A stretch of DNA of 64,000 nt from assembly GCA_949152475.1 (NCBI GenBank), contig OX424555.1, positions 62,973,977-63,037,976 of the forward strand, read 5' to 3'. Source of the stretch: Terebella lapidaria (taxonomy: Eukaryota; Annelida; Polychaeta; Terebellida; Terebellidae). The notes beneath the pieces are model-generated. The model did not search any database. It saw only the letters and a program-made list of their open reading frames with translations, and was not told where the DNA came from. How positions within the stretch are numbered: position 1 is the stretch's first letter; each line of letters opens with the position of its first letter. Both the position numbers and the translations under genes were made by a program. Shown here piece after piece: positions 3,001-53,830 of this stretch.

Positions 3001-4298
3001 ACTTTACTGGTTTCTTTTCAATGACATCAAATTTGTTGAACCAGTTACTACTGTAGTGATTATTTCTCAGTACATTGGGCTGGAATATTTGACAGTGTAG
3101 AATATAATTGACACCAAAAAAAGATATGAAAATTTGGTATTCTGATAAATCTATGGATCTCTCTTCAACAGCTTTGCATCGAGTCATTACGGAGGCAGAC
3201 CTGTTCTACTGTGAGCATTGCTCGTTCAAGACCGCAAACCGCTATGGCCTGAAAGTCCATATGAAGAATGTGCATTCTGAGACTCCGCCTCAGTTTGTCT
3301 GTAACATTTGCGGGACTGTGCTAAAGTTCAAGCAATCCCTTCTGGATCATCAGAAACGCCACTTCAACCAGAAGAACTTCCAGTGCTCCCTCTGTCCCTT
3401 CCTCGGAATTTGTAAGTAAACCTCAATTACTGGCTCCTCTTTTTCACAACACCATCATGTATTTTATTACGCAAGATGTGGTACAATGAACAAGTTGCTT
3501 GTTCGTCATACAAAGTTTTATTCAAACACAGATCTGCACAATGCTGGAGATTCATGCTTTGTATACCAGTTTGTTTGCTCTCGAACTCATGTAATCAATC
3601 AAAACACAAAATGAACAATAACATGTACTTACAGTATATTGAATTCCCCCCACTAGGTGAGAAGGATGTGAAGAACCACATCCGGCGTATGCACCTGGAC
3701 CAGAACTACCCATGCACAGTCTGTGGGAAGACCTTCAAGCAGGCAGGCCACCTCAAGCGCCACCAGGTCATACACACGGGCGCCAACGACTACCAGTGCA
3801 CCAAGTGTAACTATCGGTGCAACGTCAAGGGCAACCTCTCTAAGCACATGGAACAGGTGCTTGTCAGCGCAAAAAAATGATTATTTATGGTGTCAGATTA
3901 TCATGTGATATCTATGTGTGGAAATTTTACTGTGAAAATTTAACCATCCTCCTTCTACTATCAAGGTTCACAAGATCAAGATTCGACTGCGCAACTACAT
4001 TGAGAAAATGGATGCTCCGTCGAGTACACAGGTATCGTACGTCGTACCCAAGGCGGAGGAGGAGGAAGACGTAGAGTCTGTCGTGGACGAAGCGTTGAAA
4101 GCTGCCGACTCGCTGGCAGTGGCACCTGACAGCAGTGACGCCACCAGTGGAGCACACCAATACTTCCAGGTTCCCGTAGTGGACTCGGAGACAGTGGAGG
4201 AGGACTTCCAGGAGGTCATGTTCGTACAGAGTGAAGATGCAGAGGCTGTAGAGGGGCCGGTAGTTTACGCCATCACGCATGACGAGGCCACGTACTAA
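1..4298 (+). CDS. C2H2 zinc-finger protein, 13 fingers, 3' eleven exons (5' partial)
   Basis: Probable nuclear DNA-binding regulator. A consistent splice model reads open throughout: exons 1-140, 375-452, 752-832, 1004-1042, 1254-1388, 1720-1905, 2434-2688, 2840-2992, 3172-3411, 3657-3856 and 3966-4298, all with GT donors and AG acceptors. The acidic Glu/Asp-rich N-terminal part runs off the left edge. Thirteen C2H2 fingers follow, from FQCTDCKRRF (exon 5) to YQCTKCNYRCNVKGNLSKH (exon 10). Several fingers are completed only by splicing, for example RHRQ joined to AVH and HMEQ joined to VH. The tail is acidic (KAEEEEDVESVVDE) and ends EATY, a likely activation or protein-contact segment. Some finger linkers are TGEKP-like (VIHTGANDYQC), but most are irregular. 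The fingers place it in the large C2H2 class; I do not recognise the orthologue. The exon model is inferred from splice signals and frame only. Confidence 0.88.
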
Positions 4299-6099: not shown

Positions 6100-9000
6100 A
6101 TAGGAGTTCTCCATAGAGAGAACCCCATTTGGAAAATGGGCTAGACAATGAATTGTACAAGCCACTAACCCACGTGACCGGAACGTGACGTCATTCTCGT
6201 CTCCTATGGCTGTCCTTCAACTTGGATTTTGCCTTGCTGACATGACTTTGGAGAATTTTTCTTAGTTTATCGTCTTACGAACGCTACTTTTTACATGCCA
6301 TTTTGGATTTTACTTTTCTGTGATATTTGTCGTGGATCGTGTGGATTGTTTCGCACCTTTGGCGCCGTTGTGTGTTGGAGCGCGGACTTCCTTTACCCAC
6401 TTTGTTGTGATGCTCCGCTGCGCCCAGTGTGGGCAACAGTTGCCGGCGTGGGAAGTTCACGTGGAGTGCGTGTCTTGCCAGGACCCGGTACACACAGTTA
6501 ACTTGCGGTTTATGCGAGGGCCGTACGCGGGAGGAGTGGGCTCAGTTCCTGGGGGCCGTTCTCGCTAGGAGGGACAAGCTTCAGTCGCGCCAGGTGTCTC
6601 CGGCCCCGTCCTCTTCGTCTTCCGCGTCGTCGGCCAGGCGTCGCCGCCGTCAGCAGAGGAAAGCTTCTGCCCTGCTGGGCAAGCTGGATCGCACCCTGAT
6701 TTGCCTAGGAGTTAAGTTTTCTTCCCCTTCCCCTTTGTTTTGTTCCGCGTGTGACCTGCTGGTGGGAGAGTCACACTCGACCCACGGTGGCGTGTCCGTG
6801 AGTCTTTTCACTGTGTATTTCATGTTCCGTCAGCCGGGAGCCTGTTTGCGCATGTCACCTCAGTAGTTATCGGCGAGCAGGTTCCCTGTGCTGCGTCCGC
6901 GCCTTTTCTGGCCAGTTTCCCCCCGTTTTTCAGTTCCCGGCCCTCGGGGTCCGGACCCCGTTCGGGGGGCCGGGCTTCGTCCGAACGGGGCCCGGGCCCC
7001 GGGGTGCGGGTCCAGCAAACGACTCTTCATGGTGTTCCTGCCTTGCCTTTGCCCGTTCGGGGTCCGACCCCCGTCCTACGGGATCCGGACCTCAGGTGTG
7101 CGCTGTTGACAGGTGGTCCAGTCCACTTTAAGGGGATTTGGTCCTTAGGTTGGCAGGCTCTCTCGAAGGAGAGACCTCTTGTTGGGCCAGGGGTGTCAGG
7201 CCCCGGGAAGCAGGATTGCCTTCCGCCTGTTCAAGCCACCCTTTCAACTGCTACTACGGATAATTCTAACGGTTCTTTCTCTTTGCAGAGTTCTTCGGCG
7301 TTGACAGCCTCGTCGGCCTCCCCCACCGTATTGACAAGCTCGGCGGCTCTGCCTACCCTGCCAGGTCCCTCTCAGGTGGTGTCTCCCCCCCCCCCCTCCC
7401 CTTCGTCTGGGGTTTTCTCCAGCTGTTCCTACGGTAGATGTGTCCAGCATCGTCACGGCTGTATTGGCAGCCTTGGACGCCCGTGCGGGTGTTTCCCTGC
7501 CCCCCACGTCTGATGCCTTTCGGCGTACTTTGGCCTTGGAGCCTCCCCAGCAGTTACCTGCAGAGATCATTGGTCAGGAGTCTGACGAGAACTCGGGGGA
7601 GGACTCGGTTGCGTGCAGGCAGGATGAGGCTACCCCTTCTATACCTGCTGGGCCCACACTACTGGTTTCAGTTCCGAGGAAGCGACATTCTTCCGTGGTG
7701 GCTTCCGTGATGGCTCACTGTGACAAGCGCTCTCGCCTTGACACTGAGCCGGTGGACAGTGAGCATGGGGAGGAGGATCTTTCCTTCGACCACAAGTTGG
7801 ACTTAGTGCGGTCTACTCTGGAACCCACCCTCTTCCCGGCCGAGCCAAAGCCCGCAGTGTCCCAGCGTCCCACGTCTCTTCTGGCGTCCCAGCGTTCCCC
7901 GGAGCGACAGCCACGACGGAGCCTCCCCATCCCGGACAGGCTCCGAGAGGAGTTTTCGCGGCGCCGCACCGAGACCCTGGACCAGGGAAAGACGAGTTTC
8001 CCATCGGCCCCCTTTCCGCAAGAGAGACTATCTCCCGTCTAACCCGGATTACCTAGACAAGCCGGCGGTCTTCCCTGAGGCGGCGCCCCTTACTTGCTCT
8101 CCTTGAACCATCCCGCCAGAGCAGCTACCTGTGTGTCCTCCCTGGGGGACTGGTTCTGGACCGCGGCCTATCGCCAGTTACAGCATGCTCAGACAGCGCT
8201 TGAAGCCCTGGAGTCTCCTCCGGCTGAGTTAGCTTCTCTCGGGGACCACCTCTGTTCAGCTTCCCAACTCTTAGAGTCCTGCGACCTGGCGTCAGCTCAC
8301 CACATGGAACAGACCACGTACGTGGAGTAAGTCCACCACTTGCTGAGGCGGGATGATTTTCTGAGTCAGGCCAAGTTCAAGCTCCCCCCGGCCTTAGTTA
8401 CGGAGCTACGCTGGTGGAACCGGAGGCTGCTGCTGCTCTTCCCTCTTCTCCGCCCCTCTTCGACGGTCTGGAGTCCAGGCTGCCGGCAGCTCGTGAGTGG
8501 CCCGTCAGGAGGAGTCTGTCTCCGCTAGCAAGCGCATTACCCAAGCCCCAGCAGTCGGCCAAGCCCAAGGAAAAGAAGGACAAGAAGCCCTTTCAGGGGA
8601 CCCCTGCTGACAGTAAGCCGAAGAAGTTCGGGCTCAAGGGCAAGCCCAAGCCAGCAGGGGAGAAAAGGTCCTCTGCCCCGTGGCAGGTGAGTGTTTCACA
8701 GATACCGCTCCCTGCAGCGGACTCTGCTATACCTCGGGCTCATACCTTCGTTCCAAAATTCAAGCGAGCCCTTGGGCAGGCGTCTGGCAAATTATTGGCA
8801 AGAGTGGCAGACACTCGGAGCCAGCCCGTGGATCGTGTCAGTCCTTCGCAGGGGATTTCGCATCCAGTTCAGTCAGTGTCCTGCACTGTCTCTAGAGCCT
8901 ATTCCTTTTTCGCTTCCCGGAGCTCACGCCAAACGGTTAGCGCTTTTGCTCGCGATCGCCGATATGATGGCCAAAAACGCGCTCGAAAAAGCCGGAATTT

Positions 9001-10690
9001 CCTCTACCTGGTTACTACAGTATCCTGTTCTTGACCCCCAAGAGCTCAGGCGGATGGCATGCCGTGATCCACCTGTCATCTCTAAACCGCCATGTAAAGA
9101 CCCCCAAGTTCTCCATGGAGACGGCAGAATCGATCCGCTTGTCTCTTCCAGAAAACTTGGGTGGTCTCCCTTGATCTGAAGGATGCGTTCTTTCACATCC
9201 CGATTCACTCAGGCTACCACAGATACCTGAGCTTCGTGCACCAGGGCACTGTGTATCAGTTTCGTGCCCTGCTGTTCAGCCTGTCCCCGGCTCCATGGAT
9301 CTTCACAATGTTCGTGAAAGAGTTACAGATACTGGCTCACAAGGACGGCATCCTCCTCTACCAGTACCTGGACGACTGGACTATCTATCACCAGTCCCCC
9401 CCCCCCCTCCCACCAGGGCCTAACTCGGCACTTACAGTGGGCCCTGGACTTGTGCAAACGCATGGGCCTGTTTGTCAACCTCCAAAAATCGGAGCTAACG
9501 CCGGCCCAGGATTTCGTGTTCGTGGGGTATCGGTACAAAACCCAGCTGGGTATGATTTTCACGACAGAGGAGCGTCTGTCAAAGATACAGCCCTTGCTCC
9601 GCAGGTTCTTGGACGAGCCCAGTCAGTCAGCTCAGATCTGGCAGTCGATGCTCGGGCTGCTGGTGGCAACCGAGAAGTTGGTCCCTTACGGTCGATTTCA
9701 CATGCGGGAGTTGCAGATCGACCTTCGTTCTCAGTGGACAGCAGCCACTGGTTCCCCGAAGCAACTGGTCGTCCTTTCCCCAGCGGGGAGGGCGTCCATC
9801 ATGTGGTGGATGTCCACCGCCAATCTTACTCGGAGCTCACCCTTCCGCCAGCCTCCTCCCTCCAAGCATCTCTTTACGGATGCATCTATGGAGGGCTGGG
9901 GAGTGCACCTGGATTTCAAGGAAGTTTCCGGGGTGTGGGCAGAGCCCGAGAGTTCGTGGCACATCAACCGCTTGGAGTTGGAGGCAGTTTCGCTGGCCCT
10001 GGGCGACTGGGAGGAGGAATATGCTGGTCGTGCTGTCTTGGTGTCCACCGACAACTCCACTGTCGTGGCCTACATCAACAAGCAGGGAGGTACAAAGTCG
10101 GTTACCCTATGTCGGCAAGCCACGATGCTTCTTCTCTGGTGCCGGGCTCGGGGTATTCACTTGCGAGCATGTGACATCCCGGGTCCGACTCGGTTGAATG
10201 TGTTGGCGGATCAGCTGTCCCGCAGGGGGCAGACCCAGACAACGGAGAGGTCACTGCATCCTCTGGTGTTCAACTCCCTGTGTCTCAGGTAGGACCGTCC
10301 TAAGGTGGATCTCTTTGCGACCAGGTGGAACAACAAGCTTCCGGTGTTCGTTTCTCCTCTTCCGGACCCCCTCGCGATGTCAATCGACACGTTGTCCACG
10401 GATTGGGACGGCTAGTTCGGGTATGCGTACCCTCCAGCGATTCTGTTGCCCAAAGTCTTGGCCAAAGTCAGGTCTCACACGTGCAGAATTCTCCTGGTCG
10501 CCCCGTACCAGCCGCAGCGTTCATGGTTTTCAAAACTTGTGAGTCTGCTGATAGATCAACCAGTGGCCCTTCCCTCTTGGGAGGATCTTCTCAAGCAACC
10601 CCGGCCGCAGCTATTTCACAGCCGGCCCGGGAGCCTGAGCCTCCACGCGTGGCTTCTGTCCAGTGATCCCTTCGAGCAAAGGTGATAAAG
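6100..10690 (+). mobile_element. DIRS-type (tyrosine-recombinase order) retroelement fossil
   Basis: A GC-rich island in AT-rich surroundings. The left part (about 6.4-8.9 kb) is gag-like: proline/serine-rich and basic, with a CxxC...HxxCxxC-like motif near its start. The central part (about 9.15-9.5 kb) has RT motifs typical of DIRS elements (SLDLKDAFFHIPI, then QYLDDW). RNase H follows at about 9.88-10.29 kb (DASMEGWGVHL, then STDNSTVVAYINKQGG). A final segment with VDLFATRW-type sequence is normal in DIRS elements just before the recombinase. No tyrosine recombinase is seen before similarity ends near 10.69 kb, so the copy lacks its right end. The element is broken, with several breaks, and looks fairly old. 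The left edge, placed between 6.09 and 6.3 kb, is uncertain. Confidence 0.85.
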
Positions 10691-14275: not shown

Positions 14276-17200
14276 TTAGGCGGTCGCCTTCAACAGGTTC
14301 TCTATATCGTCATGAATGTTCTCGGGGCTGTATCCCTCGGAGTAATGCATAACCGGCTTCCCGTTACGGTCCAACAGGAACTTCTCAAAGTTCCAGCGGA
14401 TGTCACTAGCTTTGAAGTTATCGTAGTGGAGTCGGTTCTTGGGAGGGAACTCACCGAGCGCTGGTGGACACGCCGACTGTTGAATGGGGGTTAAAATATG
14501 CAAAACCCGATTGTAATTATATCACTCAGTGTCTTGAAAAAGACTATTTTTACACGAGAGGCCAGTATGTCAATAAATTTAGGTGAGGGAAATGACTAAT
14601 TTTTCGCGCAGTGCCAAATATTTGTTTGATGTCTCACGATCGGAGAGACGTACAAAGTGTACCTTTAGATAAGTGTAGATGGGGTGTTCGTTGGGTCCAT
14701 TGACTTCAATCTTCTCGCTGAGGTCGAAGTTTGGTTCAAACCCGTCCCCGGGTCTGACATATTTCAGGCTGTTCAAGATCTCCGTGCCATTGGCGCCAGG
14801 CTCTTGCTGCCAAAAATAACACGGATATTTACACTCAGATAACACAGTCTTTATGATAGCCATAAAAAACATTAACATTTTATCTCGTATTTATGTGCGA
14901 TGTGATATAACACGGATATATATACACTCAACAGATATTTACAATCACAAAACATACACATGTCTTTATCATTGAATAATCACCACACGTCGAGTCAGAT
15001 ATACAGTAGACTAATGTATGCAATGTTACTATGTCCAAGGTTTATTATCAATGTGGGCGAATTATTACCTAAATAAACCCAGCATAATTATTCCGGACAA
15101 AATAATATTCAACATTGGAAGGACTATAAATGAACACATAATATTACAGCCCACACCAGCCGCAAAGTTACTTTTTCCATTCCGTGTTTATCATTATTAA
15201 GCTAGTTCATTGTCATGTAATCACTGGCAGTGGATAAAGCATTGCATGGAGGAAAAGAGGAAAATGTAAACTATGAACTCAACTCTAATTTGAATAAAAA
15301 ATACTGATCAGCATTGGCTTGAACCGTAGTCTGCCATAAAACAAAGAAGAACTAACTATGGTCATACTGTTTGAAACACTTGAACTTTGATTAGACGGTT
15401 TTAATGATATAGAGAGTTATTCAAGGAAACCCACGATAAAAAAATTCTTGTTTGGCAGTACATTCACCAGCTTTTTGTGAATTACTGCATCTAGCGAGGA
15501 GATTGTGAACTGTAAAGACTAATTAATATGAATTGAAATATTTATATCTACAATGTAGATGATGCCCAAGTCAAAACATTCTCTTGATTTCAAAACTTCA
15601 AGGGGGGGGGGGGGGTTAAGTAATACGATTATGTAGCTTAATATTCAGCGAAATGGTGAAAACCATTTCGTTATAATAATCCTGAAAAAGAAGTTTGGCC
15701 AATTTGTGGACCCGTCTTCATCAGATTAAGGAATACTCACAAGGCCAAACTGGTTACAGGGCACGCCGAGAACCTTGAACTCTCGGTATGATGACTGTAG
15801 TGCATTCAGGGGCAGATACTGGTCGGTCGAGCCTCAAAACGACGCCACGTTCACAACCAGGACCACCTTACCCTGCGCAAAACACAAAACAAGACTTGAC
15901 CACAAATTCCCAGATATGAAGTTATAATTGAAAATTGCGTGGAAAGCTAAGACTACGTATACACGAGGTGACGCCAAAGAAGCCTCCTGGTACTGATTCC
16001 GGTTAAGTGTACGGTCTACCTTGCACCGGTCCCAGTCGAGTGTACGTCCTACAGCAGGCCTACCTTGCACTGGTCCCAGTCCAGTGACGTCCTACACCAG
16101 GCCTACCTTGCACTGGTCCCAGTCCAGTGCACGTTCTACAGCAGGCCTACCTTGCACTGGTCCCAATCGAGTGTACGTCCTACAGCAGGCCTACCTTGTA
16201 CTGGTCCCAGACGAGTGTACGGTCTACAGGAGGCCTACCTTGTACTGGTCCCAGACGAGTGTACGTCCTACAGCAGGCCTACCTTGCACTGGTCCCAGTC
16301 CAGTGCACGTTCTACAGCAGGCCTACCTTGCACTGGTCCCAATCGAGTGTACGTCCTACAGCAGGCCTACCTTGTACTGGTCCCAGACGAGTGTACGTCC
16401 TACAGCAGGCCTACCTTGCACTGGTCCCAGTCGAGTGTACGTACTACAGCAGGCCTACCTTGCACTGGTTCCAGTCGAGTGTACGTCCTACAGCAGGCCT
16501 ACCTTGTACTGGTCCCAGTCGAGTGTACGTCCTACAGCAGGCCTACCTTGTGCTGGTCCCAGTCGAGTGTACGTACTACAGCAGGCCTACCTTGCACTGG
16601 TTCCAGTCGAGTGTACGTACTACAGCAGGCCTACCTTGCACTGGTTCCAGTCGAGTGTACGTCCTACAGCAGGCCTACCTTGTACTGGTCCCAGTCGAGT
16701 GTACGTCCTACAGCAGGCCTACCTTGTACTGGTCCCAGTCGAGTGTACGTCCTACAGCAGGCCTACCTTGTACTGGTCCCAGTCGAGTGTACGTCCTACA
16801 GCAGGCCTACCTTGTACTGGTCCCAGTCGAGTGTACGTCCTACAGCAGGCCTACCTTGTACTGGTCCCAGTCGAGTGTACGTCCTACAGCAGGCCTACCT
16901 TGTACTGGCCCCAACCGAGTGTACGGCCTACAGCAGGCCTACCTTGTGCTGTTCCCAGTCGAGTGTACGGTCTACAACAAGCCTACCTTGTACTGGTCCC
17001 AGTCGAGTGTACAGTCTACAGTAGGCCTACCTTGTACTGGTCCCAGTCTATTATACGGCCTACAGCAGGCCTACCTTGTACTGGTCCCAGTCGAGTGTAA
17101 GATCTACAGCAAGCCTACCTTGTACTGGTCCCAGTCGAGTGTACGGTCTACAGCAGGCCTACCTTGTACTGATCCCAATCGAGTGGCGTCGTCCCATGTA

Positions 17201-17351
17201 CCTCCTTCAGTTCATGGTCGTAGATGCTGTCCTCGCTGAGGAAGGAGTGGTAGCAGAAAACTTTGTTGGCCCTGGCTGCCGACACCACATCTGCCAGGCC
17301 CCAGAATCCTAGGACCAGAGCCAGTAGTGACCCTGACTGGATCCCACCCAT
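14276..17351 (-). CDS. Secreted selenocysteine glutathione peroxidase (GPx3-like)
   Basis: Reduces hydrogen and lipid peroxides with glutathione or thioredoxin-type donors; the signal peptide implies extracellular action. Four phase-0 exons: 17351-17163, 15872-15741, 14806-14663 and 14476-14276, giving 221 residues. This is close to the usual length of extracellular GPx (about 220-226). Residues 1-25 form a signal peptide ([18 protein letters not shown]). The active-site block is [12 protein letters not shown]-Sec-GSTDQY. The remaining catalytic residues are present: Gln in PCNQFG, and Trp and Asn in IRWNFEKFL. The segment [18 protein letters not shown] and the longer middle region fit tetrameric GPx1/GPx3 rather than monomeric GPx4. 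Sec is encoded by TGA, so simple ORF callers stop there. A SECIS candidate and a poly(A) signal lie downstream. Intron 1 is expanded by a minisatellite derived from its own donor. Confidence 0.93.
15834..15836 (-). other. Selenocysteine TGA codon of GPx
   Basis: An in-frame TGA sits exactly at the catalytic position in VNVASF-TGA-GSTDQYL. The flanking frame is open and conserved on both sides, and a 3' SECIS candidate is present. It therefore reads as Sec rather than a stop. In cysteine-type GPx paralogues this codon is TGC or TGT. Confidence 0.92.
16000..17185. repeat. 44-bp minisatellite in GPx intron 1, built from the splice junction
   Basis: About 26 tandem units of 44 bp. On the minus strand each unit contains CGACTGGGACCAGTACAAG followed by GTAGGCCTGCTG. 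That is the last coding bases of GPx exon 1 (...LDWDQYK) plus the 5' splice site and the first intron bases. The unit next to exon 1 is the real junction. Units in the middle of the array are near-identical and those at the edges more varied. Because 44 is not a multiple of 3, all three plus-strand frames stay open, which produces long meaningless ORFs. Confidence 0.95.
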
Positions 17352-29489: not shown

Positions 29490-30395
29490 TGTGTATCGTG
29501 TGTCATGTATGTAAAGGCTATATCGTGTAATGTACGTGTAGGCTGTATCGTGTGTCGTGTACGTGTAGGCTATATCGTGTGTCATGTTCGTGTAGGCTAT
29601 ATCGTGTGTCGTGTACGTGTAGGCTATATCGTGTGTCGTGTACGTGTAGGCTATATCATGTGTCATGTTCGTGTAAGCTATATCGTGTGTCATGTACGTG
29701 TAGGCTATATCGTGTGTCGTGTACGTGTAGGCTATATCGTGTGTCGTGTATGTGTAGGCTATATCATGTCACATATGTAAAGGCTATATCGTGTGTATAT
29801 CATGTCACATACGTGAAGGCTACATCGTGTGTCATGTACGTGTAGGCTATATCATGTGTCATGTACGTGTAGGCTATATCATGTGTCATGTACATGTAGG
29901 CTGTATCGTGTGTCATGTACGCGTAGGCTGTATCATGTGTCATGTACGTGTAGGCTATATCATGTGTCATGTACGTGTAGGCTATATCGTGTGTTATGTA
30001 CGTGTAGGCTGTATCGTGTGTCATGTATGTGTAGGCTATATCGTGTGTCATGTTCGTGTAGGCTATATCGTGTGTCACGTATGTGTAGGCTGTATCGTGT
30101 GTCATGTATGTGTAGGCTGTATCGTGTGTCATGTACGTGTAGGCTGTATCGTGTGTCATGTACGTGTAGGCTATATCATGTGTCATGTACGTGTAGGCTG
30201 TATCGTGTGTCATGTACGTGTAGGCTATATCGTGTGTTATGTATGTGTAGGCTGTATCGTGTGTCATGTATGTGTAGGCTGTATCATAGGCGTCATGTAC
30301 GTGTAGGCTATGTCGTGTGTCATGTACGTGTAGGCTATATCGTGTGTCATGTAGGTGTAGCTATAATGTGCATCACCTACGTGTAGGCTATAGCA
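29490..30395. repeat. 27-bp minisatellite, copy A
   Basis: About 33 units of GTGTAGGCTATATCGTGTGT plus CATGTAC. The period of exactly nine codons keeps frames open on both strands. Units differ by a few transitions (CG/TG/CA exchanges are common). The same array with the same right flank recurs at 43,925-44,800. Confidence 0.95.
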
Positions 30396-35741: not shown

Positions 35742-36832
35742 AAATTGGTGTTATTATTCCAGTATTTCCATAGCGCATGACTGATGGATGGAGCAGATTC
35801 TATAATTGTTAAGATTCTATAAATTTCAAACTCGGCTTTTACATTATACACAGGCCTAGAAAGTAATATAGCTGGCAAAAACAGCATTCACTCAAATGCA
35901 CATGGAAACGATGAGTCGCAGATGTCACAGTTGAATATTATGTATCACGAAAAACACAGGCGAGTTCGATAATTGGTGAAGCAAAGTTGACTATTCATTG
36001 GAAAACTAGTTTCCGAGGCGCAAGTGTGGCCTTTACAGAAATCTCTGATTGGTTGGTGGATAATATGGTTGGCAATTGAATATTTGTGAATTATTCCATA
36101 GGTTATATTTCTTGCAACCGGTAAACACTTTTTTCATTTTCCTTGGCAGATAAATCCTGCGAAGTATATTTCCCAATACCGATACTAAAAAAAAAGGAAA
36201 TATATTGAAAGGATATAATTGCGGATATTTAAAATACAATAAATGAGCATGTATATGATAATAATATTAAAAACCCACAAGCAATGAGTTTCTGATGATA
36301 TATATACCAACGACTAACTCTAATTGCACTTGTTCTTCCTGACCGGACCCTTCTACCAGCGTCAGAGCCATGGGTTGCTGGCAGCAGTCCCCCCGTGAAA
36401 GCATCGGTGAGAAAACACTGATCCTGGAAAGTCGACGCAATTTCGCGACTGACGATGACAAGGACCATCTCGAAGTCGAAGATTCGCACTGTAGCAGGCA
36501 AATAGCTTTGGGATATGCAATCACATTAGTTGGAAATCTATTAAATGTATCTTCATACGCCAGCGTACAGATGCTAGTTGAGTCAGTTCCTCACTGGGAA
36601 TTGAATGCACTCAGATTCTCTGCTCAATGTGCTGTATGTGCTACACTTGCTGGCTGTACGAAGTCAACCATATCGATACCAAGAAATCAGATTGGCTATC
36701 TGATCCTCCTTACATTAATTCTTGTCGTGTGTAACTTTACCGCATACGGAGCTGCATATTATATGCCGCTTGGTAAGGCAGATGGACTCATGATAACACT
36801 GGAACTGTTGATGAATTCTGGCATAAGTATAA

Positions 36833-37130
36833 TCGAGACGAGACGTATCCGAATGAGGGAAGTTCTCGCTGGCGCGATATGCATCATAGGCATCATGATG
36901 ATAATTCAGCCCGTTATTTTATTCCACAATATCGGCGAATCCTTGGTCAATGGCTCCAATGGCTACCAATCTCCATGCTACCTGACACGAGATGACAATC
37001 AAACGTACAGCAAGCTGCTGGACCTACACAACAAGTCTGCTAACCAGAAGGCCGTCACCGGTTATGTGTTTTGCTGTATAGATCATGATGTGGATTACAG
37101 AGACTCCATTTATGTCGCGTATCCCTGTGT
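36833..37130 (+). repeat. Left copy of the host target-site duplication
   Basis: 298 bp of membrane-protein gene sequence, identical to 41501-41873 wherever both are present. It lacks the 110 bp equivalent to 53405-53514. It abuts the 3' end of the retroelement. Confidence 0.9.
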
Positions 37131-37237
37131 TTTGGAGAGTATAAAAAATGCACTGGCACAAGATAATTGTAAGAGTAACACATAACATAAAACAGCAATA
37201 AAAATTCAATGAGCAACATTGAACAAATTTTGTTGGA

Positions 37238-39415
37238 TTATTTAAGTTTGCTTCTGACTAAAAGTTCTTTAAGATTTTGATGCTTCTTGTAAGCTGTTGC
37301 TATTTTAATATCACCATCAGTATTTTTGTTGAGTTGTTTCATATGCTTTTTAACAATTTGGGCTGAAAGAGTACCTGTTTTTGAGAAGGGTACTATATAC
37401 ACCATGTCGAATTTATTTTTACTTTTGTTCAAAGGGTCATACTTTGTAAATTTTTGAACGTTGAGGCCATGAGGTTCGAAAGTGCCTAGAGTATCAATCC
37501 AACAATATTCCCTTTCAAGTCGCCATTGTTTGTTTAAAAGTTCATCACCAAGATCGGAAACCTGTTCAATTGGTAAAAGAGAAAAACATTCAATGGAAAA
37601 TTCAGTTTTGCTGTGAAATTTAGATAGATGACTGTATAATGCATTTTCCTCATTGCAGCTAGTTATTGCAGCACGGTGACGATTGTTTCTGAATTTGAGT
37701 GATTTACCGGTTTCACCTACATATTGTTTTTCGCAAAGCTTACAAGTGTATAGATAAATTATATTTTCTGAGTTGCAATCCAAAGCTGAGTTGATTGAGT
37801 AGGTCTGTTCAAAAACTGATCCTGAGAAATTTTGACAATTTGGAACTAAATGACATGTCTGACATTGTCTAGAATTACAAGGTTTTGAGCCAGACGAGCT
37901 GGAAGTGGGCAATTGAAAATCAGCACCTAATCTTTCCTCACTGTTCAAAATTCTCAATGTTTCATTCTTGATTTTGCGAAGCCAACGTTTTGAATAGTTA
38001 CGTTTCGAAAGTGCCTTGAATAATATTTGACAAGCTGATTCAACATCATCTGGATATGAGCAAATTTGGAAAAATCGAAAAACTTGGGACTTGATTAGAC
38101 CTTTATAAGTGTGTTTTGGATGAAAAGAGAGCTTATGCAACAACTGATGAGTATCCGTTGGCTTGAAGAAAACTTTTGCTTCTAATGTGTTTTCTTTGCT
38201 CCTGAACAAAGTAGTATCCAAAAAATTAACTGAATCAGTACTAATTTCAGCTTTGAAGTTGATTGATGCCCTATGAGAATTGAAAATTTCGAGAAACTGG
38301 TGAAATTTGGAAATGCCATGTGGCCAAATGAGGAAAATGTCATCTAAATACCTATAATAGCAATCTGGTTTGAATGGACACTTTTGCAAAGCTTGCTTTT
38401 CAAATTCAGCCATATAAATATCTGCATAATGAGGTGCATATTTCTGACCCATGGCTGTGCCTGAAACTTGTAGGAATGTCTTACCGTCAAATTCAAAGTC
38501 ATTACATTTAAGTGAAATTTCCAATAATTCTATTATACCTTTGAATAGTTCATTGTTTGCCAAAGTCGGGAATGCATTTTTAATTGCTTGGATACCTTCT
38601 TCATGATTTATATTAGTATACATACTTTCAACATCTAAAGTGATTAGTAAAGAATTTGGATCTAGTTCAAGACCTCTAACTTTATCTAAAAAGTCATACG
38701 TGTTTTTTATATATGACGGATGCTTATTTGCTTGATCTTTTATATATGAATCAATATACATAGCTACTTTTTCAGATTCACTGCTGCAGTCCGAAACAAT
38801 TGGGCGCCCTGGAGGCATTACATTTGGAATTGGCCAGGAGTCTTTGGGTTTATGAATTTTAGGTAGCATATAAAATCTTCTTTGACGAGGGCGTTCTGGT
38901 GGTAAAAGAAATTGGAATACTTTTTCAGAAAGGCATCCAGAATTGCGTAATCCTTTTAAAATTTTTGTTATTTTTGCTGAATTTTCTAGGTAAAGAGGAG
39001 TGTCAATTTCTCTGTAATGAGCTGGATTGTATAATTGACGAAAGCCTTCATTAATATAATTTTGCCTATCCATAATTACGACTGCACTACCTTTATCTGC
39101 TTTTTTAATTACCAAGTCTACGTTATTTTGTAAATCCTTTATAGTTTTATATTCCATTTTCGTTAGGTTTTTGGTTTCTGGTTGAATTTTCAAGTTTTCA
39201 ATTTCCTTAGATATTGCCGAAATGCAATCTAAAACGGGCTTGTCAATCATGGAACTCGGTGGAGTCCAGGTAGATTTTGGAGTGAATTTTGATCTATTTG
39301 TGAATGAATTTGGACGGTGAGAAAAATAATTTTGAAGTTTGAGTTTTCTACCAAAATCCTGCACAGCTTGTTTAATTGGATCCAATGTTATTTTGGGTGT
39401 GGGAACAAATGTCAA
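37238..39415 (-). CDS. Penelope-like ORF2: reverse transcriptase + GIY-YIG endonuclease
   Basis: Copies the element RNA at nicked target DNA. Counting from 39415 (725 residues): RT spans about residues 100-480, with KADKGSAVVIMDRQNY, LITLDVESMYTNIN (motif A), GTAMGQKYAPHYADIYMAEF (motif B) and the catalytic YRYLDDIFLIWP (motif C). A Cys cluster (CNSRQCQTC) precedes the GIY-YIG domain at about 551-655: YLYTCKLCEKQYVGETGKS, then RNNRHR, then the catalytic Glu region LEREYCWIDTL and PHGLN. Codon 1 here is TTG; the frame is actually open upstream to 39550 and overlaps the end of ORF1. The first ATG is at 39250, inside sequence that looks conserved (NLSKFTLSDTQ and GLTFVPTP lie upstream). Translation probably depends on ORF1, by shifting or reinitiation. 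Confidence 0.93.
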   Translation of the reverse strand: MTFVPTPKITLDPIKQAVQDFGRKLKLQNYFSHRPNSFTNRSKFTPKSTWTPPSSMIDKPVLDCISAISKEIENLKIQPETKNLTKMEYKTIKDLQNNVDLVIKKADKGSAVVIMDRQNYINEGFRQLYNPAHYREIDTPLYLENSAKITKILKGLRNSGCLSEKVFQFLLPPERPRQRRFYMLPKIHKPKDSWPIPNVMPPGRPIVSDCSSESEKVAMYIDSYIKDQANKHPSYIKNTYDFLDKVRGLELDPNSLLITLDVESMYTNINHEEGIQAIKNAFPTLANNELFKGIIELLEISLKCNDFEFDGKTFLQVSGTAMGQKYAPHYADIYMAEFEKQALQKCPFKPDCYYRYLDDIFLIWPHGISKFHQFLEIFNSHRASINFKAEISTDSVNFLDTTLFRSKENTLEAKVFFKPTDTHQLLHKLSFHPKHTYKGLIKSQVFRFFQICSYPDDVESACQILFKALSKRNYSKRWLRKIKNETLRILNSEERLGADFQLPTSSSSGSKPCNSRQCQTCHLVPNCQNFSGSVFEQTYSINSALDCNSENIIYLYTCKLCEKQYVGETGKSLKFRNNRHRAAITSCNEENALYSHLSKFHSKTEFSIECFSLLPIEQVSDLGDELLNKQWRLEREYCWIDTLGTFEPHGLNVQKFTKYDPLNKSKNKFDMVYIVPFSKTGTLSAQIVKKHMKQLNKNTDGDIKIATAYKKHQNLKELLVRSKLK

Positions 39416-39516
39416 ACCACGATTTAGAAGAGCGATTTGTGTGTCCGAAAGTGTAAATTTGGAAAGGTTTACAACATTATTAGTCGTACTGGAGTTCGGT
39501 GGACTCTCAGAATGAT

Positions 39517-41226
39517 TTAGTTTAAATGACTGAGCCAGAATTTCAACATTTCATTGGCCGTTTGTTCAGTCCAATGAATGTTATCTGTCTGTGTAGAAAA
39601 CTTGATTGGATCCAACTGTTTAACAACTGTGAGATTGCTGAAACGTGAACTCATGTCATCCAAAGCCCTGTTAATCATATCCAAGTTGCGTTTCTCTACA
39701 GATGGAAGATTGTCTGAGTAGTTAATTTTTGGAATGAGAATTTTGGAGTGGGGGAAGATTCGGAAAGCACTGCTGAGCATATTCCTCAGCTCTGGAATTG
39801 AAGTAACACTTGGTTTGGAGCTTCGATTGTTCAGGCCTACACTTAAGATTAAGTTTTGGGGGGCATCAAATGATTTTTTACAGGCCGTGAACATCATTCT
39901 TAGATGGTTGAACAAAGCTCCAGGATAAGACACAACTTGGATATCACTGACAGGGGATTTGGTGATGCGAGAAAGGTTAGAAGAGCCGAGGATGACAGTG
40001 GAGGAGGTTAGTTTAGGAAGGGCCCAAATAGTTTTGGGTCCTCTGATAGTGGAAGGAGAGACATGGAAAGTGGTGTTAGGAGAGTTTTTAGGAGAGACAA
40101 AGCGAGTGCGTTTGCCTTTAGGTAGAGAGGAGGGTGAGAGTTCAGGAGAAGAAGGAAAGCGCGGACGCCGTTTGGGCGTGGCACTAAGGCGGTTATCAGG
40201 AGAAGAGCGAGAGAGAGGTGGCCAATCATCAGATGATGATAGGCAAGGAGGGTTAGAGAGGGTATCAAGGAGTTGGAAGCGGTTAGAAGTGGACACAGAG
40301 GGAGGAGTGTTATTTGAAGATGGATGGGAAGAGCGAGAGGGTTTAGGATTGTTAGTAGGAGAGTTGGCACGTTTTAGGTCCATTAGGAGGCGGCCAAAGA
40401 AGTTAGAGCCTTGACCATGACGGTTAACACCCCAGTGGCTGTCAGGAACTGGATGGACAATATGACACCCTTCAGGAAGACCCATCAGAGTGTCACGGAA
40501 CAATTTGCAAGAATTAAACTTAACTTGAAGAAGTTGACGCATGATTCCATTTTTACTTTTATGCCAGAATGGGGACAGGCTAGGAATTTCACTAGCCAAA
40601 CGTTTGGCCACTCCTGCATGGGGAGCCCTGAGGATCCGATTGGCTAGGTGTTGACAATCATGGTACCGGGCTTTGTGATACTGATAGATGTGCTCAAGGC
40701 TAGGGAATCTCATACCACGATAGGATATATTACATGGGAAGAAATTACTAAGTGGGTGTTTGTGACCTTTTACCTCGCAAGTCTGAGGTTTTGATTGAGA
40801 GTTAGAATTTGGAATAGGGGAATTTGGAAGAGTAGAGGTTTTGAATTTCTGGATGGTGGAAGCCTGAAGTTTTTTGCCGAAATGAGATTTAGCCTGCTGA
40901 ATGACGAGAGCTACCGAATTTGCAATGTCCGAATCTGATAAACCTAAAGAGGAAATGTGGGCCAAAAGGTTTTGAATTGAGCTCTCATAGTGTTCCACCA
41001 AATGTTTGGTCACGTTTTGTACCCAATTTTGATTAATTTTGGAGATTTTTTGCTTGATTAGAGGACCAGAACAAGCAGGTTTAATGAAGTCATCCAGGTG
41101 TTGTTGTTTTTTACTGAAAGCCCTGGTGACTTGGCCTTGAGACTGCTGGAGCATTAGTGACAGGTGGTGAAAGCATTGAAGAAGAGTGTAAAAAGAACGG
41201 AAGTGAGGAGGTTTAGAAAGAGCCAT
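39517..41226 (-). CDS. Penelope-like ORF1: NADAR (YbiA/DUF1768) + SGNH-hydrolase-like protein
   Basis: 569 residues from the ATG at 41226. Residues 1-150 are helix-rich and unrecognised. Residues about 153-285 match NADAR: HPLSNFFPCNISYRG, then FPSLEHIYQYHKA, then MRQLLQVKF, then DSHWGVN, then GQGSNFFGRLLMDLKR. The Glu of SLEH, the Trp of HWG and the Asp before it are in place. Residues 290-395 are Ser/Pro-rich and basic (TPKRRPRF, PKGKRTR). Residues about 405-565 resemble an SGNH/GDSL fold: VILGSSNLSR (block I), a Gly in SYPGALFNH, LSVGLNNR (block III) and DNIHWT (block V). NADAR proteins are known N-glycosidases, including removal of ADP-ribose from guanine. An SGNH esterase is known in ORF1 of CR1 LINEs. 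The role in this element is inferred. Confidence 0.85.
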   Translation of the reverse strand: MALSKPPHFRSFYTLLQCFHHLSLMLQQSQGQVTRAFSKKQQHLDDFIKPACSGPLIKQKISKINQNWVQNVTKHLVEHYESSIQNLLAHISSLGLSDSDIANSVALVIQQAKSHFGKKLQASTIQKFKTSTLPNSPIPNSNSQSKPQTCEVKGHKHPLSNFFPCNISYRGMRFPSLEHIYQYHKARYHDCQHLANRILRAPHAGVAKRLASEIPSLSPFWHKSKNGIMRQLLQVKFNSCKLFRDTLMGLPEGCHIVHPVPDSHWGVNRHGQGSNFFGRLLMDLKRANSPTNNPKPSRSSHPSSNNTPPSVSTSNRFQLLDTLSNPPCLSSSDDWPPLSRSSPDNRLSATPKRRPRFPSSPELSPSSLPKGKRTRFVSPKNSPNTTFHVSPSTIRGPKTIWALPKLTSSTVILGSSNLSRITKSPVSDIQVVSYPGALFNHLRMMFTACKKSFDAPQNLILSVGLNNRSSKPSVTSIPELRNMLSSAFRIFPHSKILIPKINYSDNLPSVEKRNLDMINRALDDMSSRFSNLTVVKQLDPIKFSTQTDNIHWTEQTANEMLKFWLSHLN

Positions 41227-41455
41227 GATACGTTTCAGCAATTAATTTTGTATTAAAACCAGAACGTGATTGATTTGGATGATAAAACCAAAGGATAAAA
41301 TTATGAAAAATAAAAACAATTGTATAAAATGAGAACAAAACGTTTGAAGAAACCTGAATGCAAAGATATGGTCAATAATCTGACCAGTATCTAAAACACA
41401 ACAAAATAATACAAAACAATATAAAAGAGGTTACTCACAATGTACTCTGCCTGTT

Positions 41456-41492
41456 GCACGACCGGTTTCGGAGTTGAATCCTTTGTCAAGTG
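41456..41492 (-). ncRNA. Hammerhead-like core in the element leader (weak)
   Basis: Minus strand: TTGACAAAGGA, a short loop, TCCGAAAC, then CGGTC. The arrangement mimics a hammerhead core (CUGANGA, stem II GGA/TCC, GAAA, cleavable GUC), and Penelope-like elements are known to carry hammerheads. Two core positions differ from consensus, so activity is doubtful. Confidence 0.25.
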
Positions 41493-41500
41493 CTGAAGTC

Positions 41501-41873
41501 TCGAGACGAGACGTATCCGAATGAGGGAAGTTCTCGCTGGCGCGATATGCATCATAGGCATCATGATGATAATTCAGCCCGTTATTTTATTCCACAATAT
41601 CGGCGAATCCTTGGTCAATGGCTCCAATGGCTACCAATCTCCATGCTACCTGACACGAGATGACAATCAAACGTACAGCAAGCTGCTGGACCTACACAAC
41701 AAGTCTGCTAACCAGAAGGCCGTCACCGGTTATGTGTTTTGCTGTATAGAAGCAATCTGTTGTTTCTGGAAATGTTTTTGTTTTGAATAGTTGGATTGCC
41801 TTTCTTGGTGGAATAGTGGCGTCGATCATGATGTGGATTACAGAGACTCCATTTATGTCGCGTATCCCTGTGT
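41501..41873 (+). repeat. Right copy of the host target-site duplication
   Basis: 373 bp, lacking the 35 bp equivalent to 53416-53450. Adding back each deletion, both copies reconstruct to the same 408-bp interval of the intact gene (53157-53564). Confidence 0.9.
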
Positions 41874-42139
41874 GTGTATGTTTTATGTTGCTACACATGT
41901 TCACCAGTACATCTACTGTCTGCTACGTGAAAGGTGCTCAATTAATCTTGCCTGTACATATGTCTTTGGTTCGCACCCTGAAAATCCACCTAGCGTTCAT
42001 TGCTCAGTATACCATACTCTCGGGTATATATCCCGGTCACGCCAATGTAGTGGAGATGTGTGGCGCTTCCTTCATCTTTGTGGGTAATGTCGTTGTACCT
42101 GCATACAATAGGTACAAATATCACCAAAAGTTGCCATAA

Positions 42140-43178: not shown

Positions 43179-43924
43179 GATTATTTTTCTCCAGCCACGA
43201 TCACATTCTTTGTGCGAAATATCCTGATTTCATGAACTACAATTACTTTCTGTATGAAATTCACACAAAACATTCATGAGCGGCCTGATTTTCGGGTCGC
43301 TACTTTCATTGGCTGTGACGTCATGCGCGTGCCAGTGGAGGGTTTGATCACGGTATACAATTTTCAATGATGGATGATATTACATGTACGTCTTGCAAAT
43401 AAAGTGGCTTGTCTTGTTATTCCTGCAACACAGCTTTCACCAGCCATAATTTCCACATTTTGAAAAATAATGTTCAGTTCGAATTAAAGCCTGAGTAAAG
43501 TCAAAACGAAAGTTTGAATTTTATATTTTATTTTGAATAACTCAGTGAAATATATAAACTGTTTTTTTTTTTACAAAATCGGATTATCTTCATTAGTTAT
43601 CGAAATATTAAACTTCTTGTGGGCAATATTAGGCCAATATTTTCACTGTAATATCTCGCCTCGTCAGCTAATATAATTAGTATTCAGGACGTCACACCAG
43701 GATATTGCTTTTAATTAGTGATTTATAATGTCATTCTGGCGTTGATTTGCATGGTATCACAAAAGTGTATCATCGGACGATGTAGCTATATAAATTTATA
43801 CCATGGTTACGTAGAGTGGGACATCATTATAGCAATCATTCCTTTGATACAGTCCTTAATATCTAAAAGCAAAATTGGTTTTAAGAAGCTTTGTATATAA
43901 AGTATATACTAGTAAATAAAAACA
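43179..43924. other. Intergenic DNA between duplication blocks
   Basis: No gene. At about 43.66-43.71 kb, GCTAATATAATTAG...GACGTCAC resembles the arm motif of the foldback family. Confidence 0.4.
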
Positions 43925-44800
43925 GGTGAAGGCTATAACGTGTGTCATGTACGTGTAAGCTGTATCGTGTGTTATGTACGTGTAGGCTATATCGTGTGTC
44001 ATGTACGTGTAGGCTAGATCATGCGTCATGTACGTGTAGGCTCTATCGTGCGTCATGAACGTGTAGGCTATATCGTGTGTCATGTTCTTGTAGGCTATAT
44101 CGTGTGTCATGTACGTGTAGGCTACATCGTGCGTCACGTACATGTAGGCTATGTCATGTGTCGTGTACGTGTAGGCTATATCGTGTGTCATGTACGTGTA
44201 GGCTATATCGTGTGTCATGTACGTGTAGGCTATATCATGTGTCATGTACGTGTAGGCTATATCATGTGTCATGTATATGTAGGCTATATCGTGTGTCATG
44301 TACGTGTAGGCTGTATCGTGTGTCACGTACATGTAGGCTATATCGTGCGTCACGTACGTGTAGGCTATATCATGTGTCATGTACGTGTAGGCTATATCAT
44401 GTGTCATGTACGTGTAGGCTGTATCGTGTGTCATGTACGTGTAGGCTATATCATGTGTCATGTACGTGTAGGCTGTATCGTGTGTCATGCACGTGTAGGC
44501 TATATCGTATGTCATATATGTGTAGGCTTTATCGTGTCATGTACGTGTATGCTATATCGTGCGTCATGAACGTGTAGGCTATATCGTGTGTCATGTTCGT
44601 GTAGGCTATATCGTGTGTCATGTACGTGTAGGCTATATCGTGTGTTATGTATGTGTAGGCTGTATCGTGTGTCATGTATGTGTAGGCTGTATCATAGGCG
44701 TCATGTACGTGTAGGCTATGTCGTGTGTCATGTACGTGTAGGCTATATCGTGTGTCATGTAGGTGTAGCTATAATGTGCATCACCTACGTGTAGGCTATA
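43925..44800. repeat. 27-bp minisatellite, copy B
   Basis: About 32 units of the same 27-bp repeat as 29,490-30,395. The last ten or so units and the right flank (GTGTAGCTATAATGTGCATC) align one-to-one with copy A; the left part is shuffled. Confidence 0.95.
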
Positions 44801-52302: not shown

Positions 52303-52693
52303 TCCGAGGTTCATCTGAATCGACTCTGAGGATTGTCGCTCACTCCGAGGATTGTCGCACAGGTTCCCCCACCGTGTGCTAGGGTGAACAGCATTCAGGT
52401 ACATTAAATCACATTTATAAAAAAAAAGAGACAGCTCAATTCTACCAATCAAATCATGCATAAATACAGTTTTAAATATATCTCTAGATACTTGGGAAGA
52501 ATATAAATGCAGATGTTAAAATACAATAAATAAACATGTTATGATAATGAAACTGAAAACCCACAAGCAATGGGTTTCTGATATATAATCCAATCCTTCA
52601 CGTATTCTGTTCGAATCAAGGAGCAATCAAATAACGACTAACTTTGATTGCACTTGTTCTTCCAAATCGGACCCTTATTCCAGCGTCAGAGAC

Positions 52694-53830
52694 ATGGGTT
52701 GCTGGCAGCAGTCCCCCCGTGATAGCATCGGTGAGAAAACACTGATCCTGGAAAGTCAACACAATTCCGCGACTGACGATGACAAGGACCATCTCGAAGT
52801 CGAAGATTCGCACTGTAGCAGGCAAATAATTTTGGGATATGCAATCACATTAGTTGGAAATCTATTAAATGTATCTTCATACGCCAGCGTACAGATGCTA
52901 GTTGAGTCAGTTCCTCACTGGGAATTGAATGCTCTCAGATTCTCTGCTCAATTTGCTGTATGTGCTACACTTGCTGGCTGTACGAAGTCAACCATATCGA
53001 TACCAAGAAATCAGATTGGCTCTCTTGTACTCCTTACATTAATTCTTGTCGTGTGTAACTTTACCGGATATGGAGCTTCATATTATATGCCGCTTGGTAA
53101 GGCAGATGGACTCATGATAACACTGGAACTGTTGATGAATTTTGGCATAAGCATAATCGAGACGAGACGCATTCGACAAAGGGAAGTTCTCGCTGGCGCG
53201 ATATGCATCATAGGCATCATCATGATAACTCAGCCCGTTATTTTATTCCACAATATCGGTGAATCCTTGGTCAATGGCTCGAATGGCTACCAATCTCCAT
53301 GCTATCTGACACGAGAGGAGAATCAAACGTACAGCAAGCTGCTGGACCTACACAACATGTCTGCTAACCAGAAGGCCGTCACCGGTTATGTGTTTTGCTG
53401 TATAGAAGCAATCTGTTCAGTTGCATTTGTACAGATGATATCTAGGAAGATTGTTTCTGGAAATGTTTTTGTTTTGAATGTATGGATTGCTTTTCTTGGT
53501 GGGATAGTGGCGTCGATCATGATGTGGATTACAGAGACTCCATTTATGTCGCGTATCCCTGTGTGTGTATGTTTTATGTTGCTACACATGTTCACCAGTA
53601 CATCTGCTGTCTGTTACATGAGAGGTGCTCAATTAATCTTGCCTGTACATACGTCTCTGGTTTACACCCTGAAAATCCCCCTAGCGTTCATTGCTCAGTA
53701 TACCATACTCTCGGGTATATATCCCGGTCACGCCAATGTCGTGGAGATGTGTGGCGCTTCCTTCATCTTTGTGGGTAATGTCGTTGTACCTGCGTACAAT
53801 ATGTACAAATATCACCAACAGTTGCCATAA
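52694..53830 (+). CDS. EamA/DMT-like multi-pass membrane protein, intact copy B
   Basis: 378 residues in a single exon. After a polar 45-residue N terminus there are about ten hydrophobic segments, for example GSLVLLTLILVVCNFTGYGA, VLAGAICIIGIIMITQP and PVCVCFMLLHMFTSTSAV. VPHWELNALRFSAQ, YYMPLGKADGLMITLELLMN and an acidic residue before the fifth helix (IIETRR) fit the drug/metabolite-transporter fold (SLC35G-like or EamA). A large loop between halves carries NGS and NQT glycosylation sequons. Likely a plasma- or organelle-membrane transporter; the substrate is unknown. The start is the first ATG, shared with copy A. Absence of introns suggests either an ancestral single-exon gene or a retrocopy; no poly(A) trace is seen. 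Confidence 0.8.
   Translation: MGCWQQSPRDSIGEKTLILESQHNSATDDDKDHLEVEDSHCSRQIILGYAITLVGNLLNVSSYASVQMLVESVPHWELNALRFSAQFAVCATLAGCTKSTISIPRNQIGSLVLLTLILVVCNFTGYGASYYMPLGKADGLMITLELLMNFGISIIETRRIRQREVLAGAICIIGIIMITQPVILFHNIGESLVNGSNGYQSPCYLTREENQTYSKLLDLHNMSANQKAVTGYVFCCIEAICSVAFVQMISRKIVSGNVFVLNVWIAFLGGIVASIMMWITETPFMSRIPVCVCFMLLHMFTSTSAVCYMRGAQLILPVHTSLVYTLKIPLAFIAQYTILSGIYPGHANVVEMCGASFIFVGNVVVPAYNMYKYHQQLP

What the first reader, a model, noticed from the sequence alone, without database searches (positions are those of the whole stretch)
39517..41226. Retroelement ORF1 that fuses a NADAR domain to an SGNH-hydrolase-like domain
An intact Penelope-like element carries an upstream protein with two enzyme-like modules. 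NADAR (YbiA/DUF1768) shows its conserved Glu, Asp, Trp and terminal GSNFFGRLLMDLKR block. The SGNH-like module has blocks I, III and V. Known: NADAR enzymes split N-glycosidic bonds, and some reverse ADP-ribosylation of guanine in DNA; CR1 LINE ORF1 proteins carry an SGNH esterase. Inference: the element may use NADAR to strip ADP-ribose put on its nucleic acid by host ADP-ribosyltransferases (an anti-defence role), with the esterase acting on an ester-linked modification or membrane. I do not know of a described Penelope-like ORF1 with this pair.
Basis: partly seen in the sequence, partly recalled or inferred. Interest (0 to 1): 0.92.

Follow-up and report, generated by a model that had tools for sequence, protein, structure and literature searches.

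The report
Retrotransposon with NADAR and esterase domains
A recently active jumping gene of a Penelope-like kind, in an animal genome, makes a first protein that joins a NADAR domain (a family known to remove ADP-ribose from guanine) to an SGNH-type esterase domain, and very probably links it to its reverse transcriptase by a ribosomal frameshift; what the NADAR does for the element is untested.

The parts
37131..41500 (-). whole Penelope-like element copy, 4370 bp, 5' end at 41500, 3' end at 37131
   Evidence: bounded by a 100% identical flanking direct repeat; the same 5' end, 31 nt after a TATAAATA box of tandem units, is seen at five other distinct flanks
39517..41226 (-). ORF1 from its ATG (open frame 39517-41241)
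40831..41202 (-). ORF1 N-terminal helical domain, residues 14-137; present with and without NADAR in relatives
   Evidence: model of this part alone pLDDT 90.7, no PDB match at E 0.001
40357..40788 (-). NADAR domain, residues 152-295 (Glu183, Lys190, Trp226, His263, Trp270)
40036..40356 (-). Ser/Pro-rich linker of low model confidence, residues 296-402
   Evidence: pLDDT mostly under 50, pN/pS 0.39
39520..40035 (-). SGNH hydrolase domain, residues 403-574 (Ser421, Gly441, Asn471, Asp553, His556)
39520..39526 (-). UUUAAAC slippery heptamer, in phase U UUA AAC, directly before the ORF1 stop UAA (39517-39519)
37238..39550 (-). ORF2 open frame (770 codons): RT and GIY-YIG-like endonuclease, in the -1 frame to ORF1, no ATG in its first 100 codons
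38252..38686 (-). reverse transcriptase domain (RVT_1 match; YLDD motif in the sequence)
37835..37879 (-). Cys-rich stretch CNSRQCQTCHLVPNC between RT and GIY-YIG, a mark of Neptune-like elements
   Evidence: sequence; criterion from PMC3846280 (passage)
37490..37762 (-). GIY-YIG endonuclease-like domain (below Pfam cut-off)
36833..37130 (+). left copy of the flanking duplication (298 bp; lacks 75 bp of the right copy)
41501..41873 (+). right copy of the flanking duplication (373 bp)
36370..42139 (+). EamA-like (transporter-like) gene interrupted by the element
   Evidence: EamA 19.9 bits, below the cut-off 28.2; element-free paralogue at 52589-53830, one 413-codon open frame, EamA 19.5 bits

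Best explanation
This is a recently active, Neptune-like Penelope retrotransposon with a gag-pol-like layout. ORF1 is an RNP protein of three modules (helical N-terminal domain, NADAR, SGNH hydrolase). Most ribosomes stop after UUUAAAC; a minority slip by -1 there and make an ORF1-RT-endonuclease fusion (strongly supported, not measured). NADAR most likely binds and hydrolyses ADP-ribose on guanines of the element's RNA or cDNA, or on other targets of host ADP-ribosyltransferases, so that reverse transcription is not blocked (inferred). The SGNH module most likely serves RNP placement at membranes, as proposed for LINE ORF1 esterases, and is dispensable as an enzyme in some relatives (inferred).
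For: Domains. Activity and copies: 76 of 76 scored matches (of 1120 first-look candidates) are full length at 97-100% identity, 74 of 76 without inner stops; flanking duplication 100% identical. Selection: pN/pS N-terminal 0.10, NADAR 0.10, SGNH 0.25, linker 0.39 over 18 same-length ORF1 rows of 19 (17 distinct places, as L018 and L026 are one place); ORF2 0.10 over 3 copies. Frameshift: the only in-phase XXXYYYZ heptamer of the searched kind in 575 codons is UUUAAAC just before the stop; heptamer kept at 48 of 48 unique genomic places; the 90 codons of ORF2 before any AUG have pN/pS 0.27 in the ORF2 frame against 1.64 and 1.63 in the other two (25 of 27 distinct sequences, those open in the ORF2 frame; 44 of 47 places open); Leu-Asn ends, or stands within 11 residues of the end of, 19 of 20 related ORF1s with a complete C-terminus. 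NADAR catalysis: Glu183 and Lys190 in 15 of 15 NADAR-bearing ORF1s, also in P0009 and P0010 whose SGNH Ser and His are gone. Published NADARs reverse guanine ADP-ribosylation of DNA and RNA (PMC11543638; PMC11833690).
Against: The YbiA-subfamily glutamate (E125 of the Phytophthora enzyme, structural equivalent of D171 in E. coli C7 NADAR, whose replacement impaired hydrolysis) is not there: Val262-His263; of 15 NADAR-bearing ORF1s only P0015 has Glu next to the invariant His. Schuller et al. say phage NADARs have His at that place, so activity is plausible but not shown. NADAR is absent from 8 of the 23 related proteins, so it is not essential to all such elements. No host ADP-ribosyltransferase was looked for. 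The predicted stem after the slippery site is not significant (z -1.42, 21 of 200 shuffles as good), and two related ORF1s (P0019, P0021) have Gln before Leu-Asn, which cannot give UUUAAAC. Heptamer conservation among 97-99% identical copies is weak on its own, and no relative's DNA outside this genome could be read. No expression data.
Confidence: 0.5

Rival explanations
1. NADAR works as a reader rather than an eraser: it binds ADP-ribose on host proteins or chromatin (for instance at PARP-active DNA breaks) and brings the RNP to sites for target-primed reverse transcription.
For: The third catalytic acid is replaced while Glu183, Lys190 and Trp270 are invariant; the fold matches an ADP-ribose complex (8bau).
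Against: The residues that never vary include the two (Glu, Lys) that published mutants need for hydrolysis. His variants are reported for phage NADARs, and T4 NADAR was active on guanosine-ADP-ribosylated RNA; whether T4 NADAR itself has that His I did not check.
Confidence: 0.22
2. NADAR acts on small NAD- or ADP-ribose-derived molecules (immune signals or reactive metabolites), as proposed for phage NADARs and reported for YbiA on riboflavin intermediates.
For: YbiA-like fold and TIGR02464 match at 62.3 bits, below its cut-off of 73.7; proposal for phages in PMC9503650 (passages).
Against: Fusion to an ORF1 in two unrelated retroelement kinds suggests a target near the RNP; [quoted passage not shown]
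Confidence: 0.15
3. NADAR and SGNH are structural parts of a gag-like protein, kept for folding or assembly without enzyme function.
For: SGNH Ser and His are lost in P0009 and P0010 while the domain stays; NADAR lacks one acid.
Against: Six of the eight NADAR positions that I tabulated (Glu183, Lys190, Trp226, His263, Trp270, Gly271) are invariant in 15 of 15 and Asp267 in 13 of 15; the window's SGNH residues are complete.
Confidence: 0.13

Closest known systems
SGNH/GDSL esterase ORFs of Penelope-like elements (Neptune-like, Athena) (PMC5408684, PMC3905857; passages read)
   Same: RT of the Penelope kind with an SGNH hydrolase in an accessory ORF; Neptune-like elements have a Cys-rich stretch between RT and endonuclease (PMC3846280, passage)
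   Different: no NADAR and no frameshift mentioned in the passages read
NADAR in Tx1 LINE ORF1 of Crassostrea gigas and in Ectocarpus Gypsy Pol (PMC12477816; passages read)
   Same: NADAR captured by a retroelement protein
   Different: other retroelement classes; no SGNH partner mentioned in the passages; in my NADAR tree the Penelope NADARs form their own clade (99/95), though one retroelement clade with three LINE-like NADARs is not rejected (p-AU 0.30). The oyster and Ectocarpus sequences themselves were not in the tree
CR1/L2 LINE ORF1 esterase (ZfL2-1, PMC3905857; passages read)
   Same: SGNH domain in ORF1 before RT; 4c1b, an ORF1-encoded protein, is matched by the ORF1 family profile
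   Different: a coiled coil instead of the helical N-terminal domain; no NADAR mentioned; non-LTR (LINE) element
DarT1-associated NADAR antitoxins and YbiA (PMC11543638, section and passages; PMC11125620, abstract)
   Same: NADAR fold, Glu and Lys of the active site
   Different: bacterial proteins not fused to a retroelement protein; acid Asp171/Glu125 present there, absent here

Membership tests
Penelope-like elements | reverse transcriptase | tested here: met
   RVT_1 43.5 bits, cut-off 29.6
Penelope-like elements | GIY-YIG endonuclease after the RT in the same ORF | tested here: inconclusive
   GIY-YIG match in the expected place, E 0.002, 18.8 bits, below the cut-off 22.6
Penelope-like elements | RT groups with telomerase/Penelope RTs in a tree | not tested
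   no reference RTs were at hand; viral contigs, phages and plasmids gave no RT relative
[quoted passage not shown]
   CNSRQCQTCHLVPNC between the two domains; criterion from PMC3846280
Penelope-like elements | tandem arrangement of copies | tested here: met
   array L025 with a 4918-bp period and 100% identical neighbours; 16 neighbouring same-strand pairs spaced 4907-4924 bp among the 76 rows (counted by eye)
NADAR superfamily | PF08719 profile and fold | tested here: met
NADAR superfamily | active-site Glu (E43/E88) and Lys (K50/K95) | tested here: met
   Glu183 and Lys190, 15 of 15 NADAR-bearing ORF1s; roles from PMC11543638
YbiA subfamily of NADAR | glutamate E125 | tested here: not met
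   Val262-His263 in the window, neither a Glu; Glu only in P0015 among 15
NADAR superfamily | hydrolysis of guanine-linked ADP-ribose | not testable with these tools
   needs an assay
SGNH hydrolases | Ser, Gly, Asn and His blocks and fold | tested here: met
-1 programmed frameshift (gag-pol-like) | X XXY YYZ heptamer in phase before the ORF1 stop, ORF2 in the -1 frame, translated without its own AUG | tested here: met
-1 programmed frameshift (gag-pol-like) | stimulatory structure 5-9 nt downstream | tested here: inconclusive
   9-bp stem with an 8-nt spacer predicted, z -1.42
-1 programmed frameshift (gag-pol-like) | measured frameshift product | not testable with these tools
   needs an assay or ribosome profiling

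The most novel reading that the evidence does not exclude
Animals such as this one mark retroelement nucleic acid by guanine ADP-ribosylation as a defence, and unrelated retroelements (Penelope-like and LINE-like) took up NADAR erasers as counter-defence; the Penelope-like element delivers the eraser inside its RNP, also fused to its polymerase by a -1 frameshift.
Probability: 0.27. Interest if true: 0.88.

Novelty: new variant of a known kind. Interest (0 to 1): 0.64.

Why it matters
Guanine ADP-ribosylation of nucleic acid is known from toxins and a few animals (DNA-guanine-modifying activity was found in six edible clams, and CARP-1 was cloned from one: PMC11209040, passage), but its role in animals is open. 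A NADAR kept under selection in a recently active animal retrotransposon, with LINE-like NADAR ORF1s in the same genome, makes it testable whether such a mark restricts transposons. The frameshift would give Penelope-like elements a gag-pol-like control; one search of the library for Penelope with programmed ribosomal frameshift found no paper, and seven papers that hold 'Penelope-like', 'frameshift', 'ORF1' and 'retroelement' were listed but not read for it.

Full report

INSERTION. The element splits an EamA-like gene (EamA below cut-off: 19.9 bits in the broken copy, 19.5 in the paralogue, cut-off 28.2). Its flanks are copies of one stretch: 36833-37130 and 41501-41873, 100% identical over 250 + 50 bp, the left copy lacking 75 bp. 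A paralogue without the element, with one open frame of 413 codons, lies at 52589-53830. The identity of the flanks says the insertion is recent. A duplication this long is unusual against the 8-10 bp, or none, told for Penelope elements in the passages of PMC3846280, and I cannot explain it.

COPIES. In those rows 16 neighbouring same-strand pairs are spaced 4907-4924 bp (counted by eye), and one array read in full has a 4918-bp period with identical neighbours. Array units have about 545 bp more than the window copy, with a TATAAATA box (read in L025). Copies without that stretch upstream begin exactly 31 nt after the first T of the box at six distinct flanks (window, L020 with its duplicate L021, L028, L030, L034, L056), at position 4 in L054, at 47-50 in six (L023, L032, L033, L047, L052, L057), and further in for the 5'-truncated ones; for L058, L063, L068 and L069 too little upstream DNA was held to tell. 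So such copies look like reverse transcripts from the transcription start onward (inference), and lone copies such as the window's lack that promoter.

SELECTION. Over 18 ORF1 rows of equal length (of 19 collected; 17 distinct places) pN/pS is 0.10 for the N-terminal domain, 0.10 for NADAR, 0.39 for the linker and 0.25 for SGNH; ORF2 over 3 copies 0.10. Variable codons are few (NADAR: 9 silent, 4 changing, of 144; SGNH: 11 and 9 of 172), so the ratios are rough.

FRAMESHIFT. ORF1 ends CAT TTA AAC TAA and ORF2 is open in the -1 frame with a 33-nt overlap. U UUA AAC is a classic slippery heptamer (recalled) and the only in-phase XXXYYYZ of the searched kind in ORF1. It is kept at 48 of 48 unique genomic places, one of which has UAG instead of UAA; as the copies are 97-99% alike, this alone is weak. 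Stronger: the first 90 codons of ORF2, before its first AUG, have pN/pS 0.27 in the ORF2 frame and 1.64 and 1.63 in the other frames (25 of 27 distinct sequences, chosen as open in the ORF2 frame; 44 of 47 places are open), so they are translated although they have no AUG. In related ORF1s Leu-Asn ends the protein in 15 and stands within 11 residues of the end in 4 more, of 20 with a complete C-terminus; the miss is P0022. In P0019 and P0021 the residue before is Gln, so their site cannot be UUUAAAC. A 9-bp stem 8 nt downstream is predicted but is not significant.

RELATIVES. Of 23 proteins found, 14 carry NADAR (P0001-P0013, P0015); in 12 of these both the N-terminal and the SGNH domain are there, while P0008 lacks the N-terminal domain and P0013 stops early in SGNH. 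Eight have no NADAR (P0014, P0016-P0022; P0020 is cut at its end), and P0023 is a LINE-like ORF1 with NADAR. The 14 NADARs plus the window form one clade (96/88; 99/95 with P0001 left out), while the ORF1 tree needs two changes of NADAR presence: one old capture with two losses is the simplest reading, but the root is not known. Most sources give no names.

ACTIVE SITES. Glu183, Lys190, Trp226, His263, Trp270 and Gly271 are kept in 15 of 15 NADAR-bearing ORF1s; Asp267 in 13 of 15. In PMC11543638 (section read) the equivalents of Glu183 and Lys190 matter for hydrolysis (one Glu-to-Ala change had only a minor effect in vitro), and a further acid (E125, or D171) marks the subfamilies; that acid is not present here. 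A His is invariant at or beside the place, depending on the alignment, and the paper says phage NADARs have His there. In P0009 and P0010 the SGNH Ser and His are both replaced while the NADAR positions stay, so NADAR is the more constant enzyme.

SECOND ELEMENT KIND. P0023, LINE-like by eye, finds 69 of 69 scored places (of 985 candidates) in the own genome at 24-35% identity; 65 of them start at residue 164 or earlier, so cover the part before NADAR as well. I read two (L073, L074): NADAR at 114 and 129 bits; L073 also has an L1-RBD-like match below cut-off (17.5 against 22.4). Neither has an ORF of 200 codons or more in the 1.6-2 kb downstream, so they may be ORF1-only or decayed copies. 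They keep a Glu at the E125 region. One clade of LINE-like and Penelope NADARs is neither shown nor rejected (p-AU 0.30).

PRIOR ART. SGNH in Penelope-like elements: PMC3905857 and PMC5408684 (passages). NADAR in C. gigas Tx1 ORF1 and Ectocarpus Gypsy Pol: PMC12477816 (passages). I found no paper on the pair or on NADAR in a Penelope-like element; searches: (listings; only the papers cited here were opened). For frameshifting. The library holds open-licence papers only; PMC8557442 on Penelope-like elements was not held.

MECHANISM. Shown by computation: the architecture, its spread, selection on each module, and selection on ORF2 codons ahead of any AUG. Inferred: RNP role of ORF1, frameshifting itself, NADAR as eraser (best guess, about 0.5), SGNH in membrane placement (after the proposal of PMC3905857 for LINEs).

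Noticed in passing
L073, L074 and 69 places listed: Many diverse LINE-like ORF1s with a C-terminal NADAR match in the same genome; the two that were read lack a long ORF downstream, as if ORF1-only.
   Followed up: partly
36833-37130 and 41501-41873: Unusually long flanking duplication (298/373 bp), 100% identical apart from a 75-bp gap in the left copy, in the coding part of a gene.
   Followed up: partly
L025 and other arrays; window 41450-41500: Tandem units carry a TATA box in a ~545-bp stretch that lone copies lack; copies start 31 nt after it or, in six cases, at position 47-50, just after a GAAACCGGTCGTGC motif that reminds of hammerhead cores (no Rfam match).
   Followed up: partly
6411-10292: A second retroelement with reverse-transcriptase-like reading frames that look like the DIRS/Ngaro kind (judged by eye).
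   Followed up: no
29758-30386 and 43856-44577: Two tandem-repeat arrays open in several frames (repeat peptide like YMTHDIAYT).
   Followed up: no
15972-17239: A long minisatellite-like array open in three frames.
   Followed up: no
1629-3880: Exon-like stretches that look like C2H2 zinc fingers (judged by eye).
   Followed up: no
40831-41202: The helical N-terminal domain of this ORF1 family is predicted with high confidence and has no convincing match in the PDB.
   Followed up: partly
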